Below are positions 59,395 through 61,917 of a stretch of DNA of 64,000 nucleotides, piece by piece. Made by a program: the position numbers and the translations under genes. The stretch is taken from NCBI GenBank assembly GCA_038503035.1, contig JAVSML010001153.1, positions 62,001 to 126,000 on the forward strand, in the 5' to 3' direction. The notes under the pieces were generated by a model that was given only the letters and a program-made list of their open reading frames with translations, did not search any database and was not told the DNA's origin. How positions within the stretch are numbered: position 1 is the first letter of the stretch; each line of letters starts with the position of its first letter. This DNA is from Crocodylus rhombifer. Lineage: Eukaryota > Chordata > Crocodylia > Crocodylidae.

Positions 59395-59791
59395 CAGTAG
59401 TATATAGGGTACACCTCTCATCAAACTGGCGAGCCCGCCCCACTGACAGGTGCCCCGTCCCTGGCCACACCCTTAGCTCTGCCCCAACCACACACCCCTA
59501 GACACGCCCCCTGCCCACCATCTTGGCTGCCATATTGTAGTCAGAAGTCCCACCCCTAACCCCTGACCTCTGGGACCATTTTGGGGGTGTTTCTGACTCT
59601 GAAACAGCAAGTCCTACCTAATCACATGCCCTTATGACATCAGAAGTCCTGCCCCAGCCCCCATGTTGATGGCTATCTTGGCTGCCATGTTGCATCCCAG
59701 AACACCCTGTTCCCATCACATGGTCTGTTACCTCATCAGGCCCAACCCCCTAGGCAGCCATGTTGGCAACCATCTTGGCTGCCATGTAAAC
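59395..59791 (+). repeat. Left terminal inverted repeat
   Basis: Pairs with the right arm. It holds CATCTTGGCTGCCATGTT-type segments, the inverse of ATGGC-rich motifs in the right arm, and a CACATGGTCTGTTACCTCA segment. Confidence 0.82.
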
Positions 59792-59977
59792 CCAAGAAAC
59801 AGTAAGTAAAAGATATTGTAATGAAACAGACAAGATATCTCTATGTATAGAGAGTTAAAAATGGTTACATACATACCAACCCCTGTCTTGGTCTGACCCC
59901 TCTGAAGCTTTTCTGGTCTAAAAGTTGGGCTGCTCTGCTGTAATAAGGACTCCAATAAACAGTAAGTCAAAAAAAGT

Positions 59978-61289
59978 TTATAAAAATATATAAAAACCTA
60001 TGACTACATAGAACCTGGTGTCATGAATAACACCATGTAAAGCAGCATGTGGGTCTCCAGCAAAATGAATATGGTTTATAATCGCCACACCCTGAGCTAA
60101 ATGTTTCTCAGTGAGGCATAGACAATCCATAGAGTACCCTAATGCAATTATAGCTTTTAGAATACTCTCCATACACAGTTCAATACAAAGTTCCCGAATT
60201 GTCTGTTTTATATCCTCATCCATTTTGTCCATACGTTTGTGGCTTGCTTGACCTGGTACATTTAGGAGGCAGCCCCTGCAGACTTCAAAAAGTCTCTCCC
60301 TCAAACAATATTTCAGTATGCCATAACAACAAACATGTACAAGAGATTTCATGAGCCTTTTATGACCCCACGGTGAGACAGGTCCTGTTCGTTCAATTCC
60401 TAGTTGTCTTCTAAAGGCCACAGCACTCTCTTCTTCTGAAGCACCAGGACTCTGATTGTCACAAAAACAGCTTCTCTTTCCAAGTACCAAGGTTATAGGG
60501 CTGCTGCTGCATTGTCTTTCTGTTGTCATGAGAAAGGCTTCATCAAGCTGCAGAGGAATTTTAAAGGAGAAACTCTGTTACCCATTGTTTAAGGAGTCCG
60601 TAGTCAATTCCTGCCCCCACCCTGCTACCAATACTCCCTAAAGACCACCTCCCCCCCACTCCTCTCCAAGTTCAAGACACTCACCAGTGGCTCTGTCCCC
60701 CCAGAGACATCTTCTTCTCCCTCAGCATCCAATATGAGGCACCCCTCTTCTCCAGAATCCTCAGCATCAGCTCTGGGCATCTGACCACCAAACATCTCAG
60801 GAAATGCTCAGGTTAGGGGGCTACTGTCTCTAATCTCCCCCTCTTCAGAACTATCACTTTGATAGGGTTTTCTCGGCAGACATCTGTCAGGCCTTCGTGG
60901 TAAGGCAGGGACAAAGGGCCTTACTGGTGTGGTAAAAGAATCCCTGTTTGCTCCCTGCAAAGAGATGATATAGTTAACACAGGCCCACCCTGCTACCATA
61001 GAAAGCCACTCCCTCCAAAAAATTTTTAAAAATCTAGGTTAGTTACCTCAGCAGAGCCCTTGGGATTTAGCCTGTCTGCCACTCCCAGACTCTCTGCCTG
61101 TGGCTCTGATGCACTCTGTTGCGGGTCTGCCATGGTCCCTGGATCTGTTTTGGGAGTCCAGGAATCTCTCTCAACCACTGAGATCTCATCCATAGCGCTG
61201 CTGAGAAAGGTTTGAACAGTGCCTGAGGCTTCCAAAGTATAAGAATCCATATTAGTTTCTGTCTGTATTAGCATGGTCTCAGAAAACAT
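59978..61289 (-). CDS. Three-exon candidate protein of the inverted-repeat element, one internal TGA
   Basis: Exon 1 is open from upstream of 61448 to 61047; the first in-frame ATG is at 61289. Donor GAG|GTAACT, acceptor CTTTGCAG|GGA (60955/60954). Exon 2 is 60954-60685, donor CTG|GTGAGTGT. Acceptor CCTCTGCAG|CTT (60548/60547), exon 3 is 60547-59978. Introns are 92 and 137 bp. All junctions are phase 0 and all three frames agree. One TGA lies in exon 2 at 60810-60808; an ATG follows in frame at 60795. Exon 2 is acidic (SDSSEEGEIRDSS, EDSGEEG) after a basic RRPDRCLPRK. Exon 3 has many Cys and His residues, including VCCYGILKYCLRE and VCRGC, suggesting metal binding. No transposase, helicase, polymerase or capsid motif is seen. 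Function unknown. No AATAAA was seen just downstream. Confidence 0.5.
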
Positions 61290-61469
61290 GCAGCCTGGTT
61301 TGGAGTGTTTCCAACAGGATTTAGACAAAAGGCAGGCCAGGGACTGCCAGCCTAGGTCCCACCCCCACCCTATACATGCCCTGATTGGTTTGACACCATG
61401 CTCAGGGAGAGGAGTTTCCAAGTTAAGGAGTGGCTGTTCTGATGTCACAGACCATGTGATGGGAACAGG

Positions 61470-61917
61470 TTGTTCTGGGACCTAACATGGCGGCCAAGAT
61501 GGCCACCAACATGGCTGCCTGGGGGGGTTGGGCCTGATGAGGTCACAGACCATGTGATGGGAACAGGGTGTTCTGGAATGCAACATGGCGGCCAAGATGG
61601 CTGCCAACATGGGGGCCAGGGCAGCACTTCTGGAGTCATAAGGGCATGTGATCAGGCAGGACTTCCTGTTTCAGAGTTAAAAACACCCCCAAAATGGAGA
61701 ACTGCTGGGGGCAAGGGTGGGGTTTCTGGTGGCAAAGGTCAGGGCTTGGAGCAGGACTTCTGACCACAAGATGGTGGGTAGGGGCATGTGTTGGGGGCAT
61801 GGTTGGGGTGAAACTAAGGTGTGTCCTGGGCATGGCTAGGGGCAGGGAAAGGGGCAGGGCACCTGTCAGTGGATGGGGCTTGTTAGTTTGATGAGAGGTG
61901 TACCCTATATACTACTG
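61470..61917 (-). repeat. Right terminal inverted repeat
   Basis: Inverse of the left arm. It contains two tandem copies (about 61455-61520 and 61545-61610) of a unit with GACCATGTGATGGGAACAGG, TGTTCTGG and ACATGGCGGCCAAGATGGC; the left arm has the equivalent of one full unit plus part of another. It lies upstream of the minus-strand gene and so could hold its promoter. TATATAG occurs near the very end. Confidence 0.82.

What the first reader, a model, noticed from the sequence alone, without database searches (positions are those of the whole stretch)
59395..61917. Unclassified 2.5-kb inverted-repeat element carrying a spliced gene
The element is complete: roughly 400-bp inverted ends starting CAGTAGTATATAGGG and a 4-bp ACCA duplication. 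Between the ends are three minus-strand open segments joined by two consensus GT-AG introns (92 and 137 bp), all in phase 0. Three independent frames agreeing across two predicted junctions is unlikely by chance. The predicted product (acidic middle, Cys/His-rich end) is no transposase family I know. A short spliced regulatory-type gene between long terminal repeats is more like a small DNA virus or virus-derived transposon than a typical MITE.
Basis: partly seen in the sequence, partly recalled or inferred. Interest (0 to 1): 0.88.

Follow-up and report, generated by a model that had tools for sequence, protein, structure and literature searches.

The report
Gutted Maverick keeping a spliced gene
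This 2.5-kb stretch is the remnant of a Maverick, a virus-like mobile element: it kept both ends, its 6-bp insertion footprint and a broken copy of a predicted three-exon gene that full-size Mavericks in the same (likely crocodilian) genome carry just inside one end, although genes of intact vertebrate Mavericks have been described as intron-free.

Summary
These are the published hallmarks of vertebrate Mavericks (Polintons). The same genome holds longer relatives (13.1, 15.3, about 17.4 kb) with such ends and with integrase and protease remains in all three and polymerase in two; two have perfect 6-bp duplications, the third has an eroded end. The three exons are right: an Alligator sinensis predicted protein joins them at exactly the same two points, and the four splice sites are kept in 7 or 8 of 8 related loci. 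But this copy is a fossil: exon 2 has an in-frame TGA, a conserved Cys is Arg, and a deletion took the gene's 3' end. The gene is an accessory gene of longer Mavericks, just inside the end opposite the integrase; a second, diverged subfamily and a turtle have relatives. Exon 1 lies in the repeated terminal region and occurs at both ends of two elements. Product: unknown family, Cys/His-rich, predicted nuclear. New is the conserved spliced, terminus-linked Maverick gene; the 2.5-kb copy itself is an ordinary deletion derivative.

The parts
59390..59395 (.). left 6-bp target site duplication GACCAC
   Evidence: 6 of 6 identical to 61917-61922
59396..59788 (+). left terminal inverted repeat, begins AGTAGTATATAGGG; three GCCATNTT (YY1-like) motifs
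59789..59971 (-). sequence that in relatives lies about 0.5-0.8 kb beyond the retained part of the gene; here joined directly to the left terminal repeat (core-gene deletion point near 59789)
   Evidence: stretches of 59790-59971 match L137, L138, L140, L146, L147, L167, L169, L172 at 80-94%
59972..60020 (.). second deletion point (about 0.45-0.75 kb missing relative to five relatives); took the 3' end of the gene
   Evidence: colinear match stops at 60021 and resumes at 59971
60021..60547 (-). exon 3 (Cys/His-rich, predicted helical region); the open frame runs on to 59978 through sequence not homologous to the gene
   Evidence: 148/176 identical to P0004 residues 139-314; conserved Cys to Arg
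60548..60684 (-). intron 2, 137 bp, CTG|GTGAGT ... CTCTGCAG|CTT
60685..60954 (-). exon 2 (basic and acidic SDSSEEGE region), broken by TGA at 60808-60810
60955..61046 (-). intron 1, 92 bp, GAG|GTAACT ... TTTGCAG|GGA
61047..61193 (-). exon 1, coding part aligned to the first residue of P0004 (open upstream to 61274)
   Evidence: 43/49 identical to P0004 residues 1-49
61485..61916 (-). right terminal inverted repeat, ends CCCTATATACTACT; five YY1-like motifs on the minus strand (counted over 61440-61916)
61917..61922 (.). right 6-bp target site duplication GACCAC

Best explanation
The element at 59396-61916 is a Maverick (Polinton) that has lost its core genes but keeps both AGTAGT/ACTACT ends, a 6-bp insertion duplication and a broken copy of a predicted three-exon accessory gene that lies just inside one end of full-size Mavericks in the same genome. 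Shown: the ends, the duplications, the longer relatives with integrase, polymerase and protease remains, the gene's position and its conserved splice sites. Inferred: a Maverick integrase made the insertion; the gene was transcribed inward from the terminal repeat, whose YY1-like motifs may be promoter elements; the host spliceosome joined the exons; the product (basic patch, acidic stretch, CxC + CxxC-x9-HxC + CxxxC) would be a nuclear, zinc-binding early regulator acting on host or element transcription. Two internal deletions (about 0.5-0.75 kb, and one of the order of 10 kb if the parent had the length of the long relatives) made this copy; whether before or after insertion is not settled.
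For: 6-bp duplication 6/6 and AGTAGT//ACTACT, the hallmarks given in PMC8097293, which also gives repeats of 46-1,447 bp, mean 402. Of 6 paired elements in the genome 4 have perfect 6-bp duplications (2,521; 15,314; 13,112; 4,818 bp), 1 has 5/6 (3,358 bp), 1 has an eroded left end and scores 1/6 (about 17.4 kb). Core genes: of 10 open frames from five elements 7 have a Pfam match (rve 1.1e-10 with Chromo 6.5e-6, DNA_pol_B_2 5.8e-13, Peptidase_C5 1.2e-5 and 9.1e-5 above Pfam's cut-off; rve 1.5e-6 and 0.0012, DNA_pol_B_2 7.7e-4 below it) and 3 none. Direct comparison finds integrase and protease in all three long elements, polymerase in C63 and C7181 but not in the stretches held of C14767, none of them in the window element. 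The gene lies at the end opposite the integrase in all three. Subfamily B begins AGTAGTATATAGG in 7 of 7 loci shown; in one copy read further (C55) the gene is followed by a polymerase frame of at least 732 codons (1.2e-22). Splice sites in 8 subfamily-A loci: donor 1 8/8, acceptor 1 8/8, donor 2 7/8, acceptor 2 8/8, at matching spacing; acceptor 2 in 12 of 14 subfamily-B loci. Same joins in P0004.
Against: No RNA evidence: splicing rests on conserved sites and on database gene models. In subfamily B only acceptor 2 was found; donor 1, acceptor 1 and donor 2 could not be placed with the window's sequence (11-15 mismatches of 28-30). The element itself fails the length and core-gene definition of a Maverick. 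AF2 models are poor (mean pLDDT 49 and 55) and no family or fold match was found, so the product's role is a guess. PMC8097293 saw no introns in genes of intact vertebrate Mavericks, which goes against a spliced Maverick gene unless accessory genes were outside that statement.
Confidence: 0.86

Rival explanations
1. A one-gene satellite: the 2.5-kb form itself replicated and inserted, using enzymes and perhaps capsids of full-size Mavericks, with the spliced gene as its only product.
For: Intact ends and perfect duplication around a 2.5-kb interior, and two further short elements (4.8 and 3.4 kb) with 6/6 and 5/6 duplications.
Against: The other two short elements keep exon 1 and integrase, not exons 2-3; none of 35 loci (pieces of relatives) compared locally spans the window's deletion junction; the gene is broken. 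The genome-wide junction search did not complete.
Confidence: 0.12
2. An unclassified cut-and-paste DNA transposon with CAG ends and 4-bp duplications.
For: ACCA flanks CAG...CTG on both sides.
Against: The base before AGTAGT varies among relatives (10 of 13 exact left ends not C) and other copies show 6-bp duplications at AGTAGT.
Confidence: 0.01
3. The three-exon gene is a prediction artefact; only exon 3, or none, is made.
For: No transcript seen; a 199-codon frame arises in 14 of 1000 shuffles.
Against: Identical joins in the A. sinensis model, conserved splice sites at matching spacing, a turtle relative 41% identical over 286 residues across the exon 2/3 join; two alligator gene models (P0012, P0013) enter at exon 3's first residue.
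Confidence: 0.04

Closest known systems
Vertebrate Mavericks / Polintons (PMC8097293; passages and section 7 read)
   Same: AGTAGT//ACTACT ends, 6-bp duplication, terminal repeats near 400 bp; long relatives carry integrase, polymerase B and protease remains; accessory regions flank the core genes
   Different: This copy is 2.5 kb against 12.7-24.6 kb, has no core gene, and its gene is predicted to be spliced whereas genes of intact elements are reported intron-free
Adintoviruses (PMC11071296, passages read; Starrett et al. 2021 not held)
   Same: PMC11089739 (passages) treats Mavericks/Polintons as derived from adintoviruses; zinc-finger-like genes are mentioned for some adintoviruses in PMC11071296
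   Different: No relative of this protein family was found in the viral contigs searched, and no spliced terminal gene is described in the passages read
LOC112551029 (Alligator sinensis), LOC132252216 (A. mississippiensis), LOC123372385 (Mauremys mutica)
   Same: Same protein family; P0004 (A. sinensis) has the same exon joins
   Different: Annotated only as uncharacterised proteins; not tied to Mavericks in the records seen

Membership tests
Maverick/Polinton (intact) | (AGT)2 ... (ACT)2 termini | tested here: met
   59396 and 61916; definition PMC8097293
Maverick/Polinton (intact) | 6-bp target site duplication | tested here: met
   GACCAC 6/6
Maverick/Polinton (intact) | terminal inverted repeats of 46-1,447 bp | tested here: met
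   393/432 bp
Maverick/Polinton (intact) | 12.7-24.6 kb with polymerase, integrase, capsid, ATPase, protease genes | tested here: not met
   2,521 bp; no match to relatives' integrase, protease or polymerase; no Pfam match at E <= 0.01 in 10 further open frames and one sub-threshold hit in 4 gene pieces. Capsid and ATPase were not tested apart. Hence 'deletion derivative', not 'intact Maverick'
Maverick/Polinton (intact) | intronless genes | tested here: not met
   conserved GT-AG sites at both introns, no RNA; statement in PMC8097293
4-bp-duplication DNA transposon | 4-bp duplication next to CAG...CTG | tested here: not met
   base before AGTAGT not conserved
one-gene satellite element | several insertions sharing the same internal junction | tested here: inconclusive
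   none of 35 local loci; genome-wide search unanswered

The most novel reading that the evidence does not exclude
Crocodilian Mavericks run a spliced early gene whose promoter and first exon sit inside the terminal repeat; because the repeat is present at both ends, the same first exon opens two opposing transcription units and is spliced to exons 2-3 at the polymerase end and to a different second exon at the integrase end, a virus-style shared leader not described for Mavericks in the papers seen.
Probability: 0.35. Interest if true: 0.75.

Novelty: new variant of a known kind. Interest (0 to 1): 0.56.

Why it matters
Mavericks are among the oldest virus-like lineages known in vertebrates, and their accessory genes are mostly uncharacterised. 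A protein family kept in two diverged Maverick subfamilies of one genome, with a turtle relative, and entered through the same splice acceptor, points to a regulatory step in the life of these elements that could be missed by annotation that expects intron-free genes. It also gives a direct test: crocodilian RNA-seq can show whether the terminal repeat acts as promoter and shared first exon.

Full report
What is there. The inverted ends are real: 393 and 432 bp, 334 of 386 aligned columns identical, the outermost 32 bp exact. The boundary needs a correction.

Which kind of element. PMC8097293 (passages, and section 7 in full) gives for vertebrate Mavericks the commonest ends (AGT)2//(ACT)2, 6-bp duplications, repeats of 46-1,447 bp (mean 402), lengths of 12.7-24.6 kb for intact elements, accessory regions on both sides of the core genes, and presence in crocodiles and turtles. 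The window's assembly (2.206 Gb, unnamed) has 41 matches to the outer 166 bp of the left end, of which 30 were fetched. Six pairs form elements: 2,521 bp (window), 15,314, 13,112, about 17,412, 4,818 and 3,358 bp. Duplications are 6/6 in four, 5/6 in one, and not assessable in the 17.4-kb one, whose left end is eroded (1/6). Ten open frames from five of these elements were scanned: integrase core in three, one of them with a chromodomain, polymerase B in two, adenovirus-type endoprotease in two, none in three; three of the matches are below Pfam's cut-off. Compared directly, all three long elements hold integrase and protease remains, often in broken pieces; polymerase was found in C63 and C7181, not in the stretches held of C14767; the window element has none of the three. 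Reverse-transcriptase-like frames, recognised by eye, lie inside some of the long elements.

The gene. Exons 1, 2 and 3 match residues 1-49, 50-96 plus 100-138, and 139-314 of the Alligator sinensis protein P0004 (43/49, 35/47, 29/40, 148/176 identical), so both predicted joins are those of an independent gene model. Homologue searches found 1, 11 and 13 proteins at the E-values allowed (1, 10, 10): two fuller alligator proteins (P0003, P0004), a turtle protein (P0014, Mauremys mutica, 41% over 286 residues), two unnamed fragments, and eight alligator gene models that carry pieces. In the window's genome P0004 gave 136 exon-level matches, a lower bound as 121 of 433 candidates were scored. They form a class A (mostly 80-90% identical where exon 3 is compared), a larger class B (about 45-55%) and some in between. 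In the three long A elements the exons lie just inside the end opposite the integrase. B copies begin AGTAGTATATAGG (7 of 7 shown); of 13 compared with L153, 8 are 93-95% identical to it and 5 are 78-92%; in C55 the gene is followed by a polymerase frame of at least 732 codons that runs off the fetched piece (E 1.2e-22), and C8225 matches C55 there at 94-95%. Splice sites are conserved: over eight A loci (ten rows, two loci twice), donor 1 8/8, acceptor 1 8/8, donor 2 7/8, acceptor 2 8/8, with introns of 83-91 and 139-158 bp. In B, acceptor 2 is kept in 12 of 14 loci; the other three sites could not be placed with the window's sequence.

Exon 1 and the terminal repeat. In the 15.3-kb element the two ends align over their first 944 and 876 bp (79-89%), which takes in exon 1 and its intron. 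Exon 1 is found at both ends there and, as a 28-residue match at the second end, in the 17.4-kb element; in C14767 it was found at the gene end only. At the integrase side the donor is kept (4 of 4 readable) and an acceptor 84 bp on is kept in two; what follows has no common reading frame and reaches an AATAAA before the integrase frame in three. This leaves open a shared first exon for both ends or simple passenger duplication.

How this copy arose. 60021-61916 is colinear with the gene-side end of relatives (82-86%). Then 0.45-0.75 kb is missing relative to five relatives, taking the last codons of the gene; 59790-59971 is sequence from beyond that gap; and at about 59789 the copy jumps to the other terminal repeat, the core genes being absent. 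The TGA in exon 2 and the Cys-to-Arg change in the conserved CxxC-x9-HxC fit a decayed gene. None of 35 loci compared locally spans the jump, but the genome-wide search for it did not complete.

Function. Conserved over P0014, P0004, P0003 and P0005 is a CxC, C, CxxC-x9-HxC, CxxxC and H pattern (the CxC lies outside P0005); a basic patch and an acidic stretch lie in exon 2. The models are helical but poor, and nothing in Pfam, PDB or BFVD matches above chance. A nuclear zinc-binding regulator is an inference from composition, position next to the terminal repeat and splicing. The repeats hold 8 GCCATNTT motifs against a mean of 0.13 in 500 shuffles of the same two arms, with the same orientation relative to each end and none in the interior; that this is a YY1 site is recalled, not tested.

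Verdict. The element is a deletion derivative of a Maverick, a known kind. New, as far as the searches named here show, is the conserved spliced accessory gene tied to the Maverick end. The host is called likely crocodilian only because the closest named proteins are alligator ones.

Noticed in passing
window 54827-55387 +: Reverse transcriptase frame (PF00078, 4.8e-22), with LINE-like pieces also at 53428-54576, 6844-7221 and 43762-44419 judged by eye.
   Followed up: partly
window 34836-35544: Tandem arrays of 30/87, 33 and 80 bp, mostly within a 294-codon plus-strand open frame (34590-35474) without Pfam match.
   Followed up: no
L150-L166 and table: Subfamily B: numerous Maverick copies in this genome, 8 of 13 compared 93-95% identical to the reference copy L153, at least 11 with the accessory exon 3 free of stops; reported as observation only.
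   Followed up: partly
P0012, P0013: Two alligator gene models (TMEM26 isoform B and an RNase H protein) enter this gene's exon 3 exactly at its first residue, so the Maverick acceptor may be donating exons to other genes; P0007 (C8orf88 homologue) may be a third.
   Followed up: partly
window 59396-59788 and 61440-61916: Eight YY1-like motifs in the terminal repeats, 0.13 expected, none in the interior.
   Followed up: partly
L171, L174, L119 integrase side: An intron-1-like unit with acceptor TTTGCAG|GTAGG (intact in two of three) and an AATAAA about 285 bp on, upstream of the integrase frame.
   Followed up: partly
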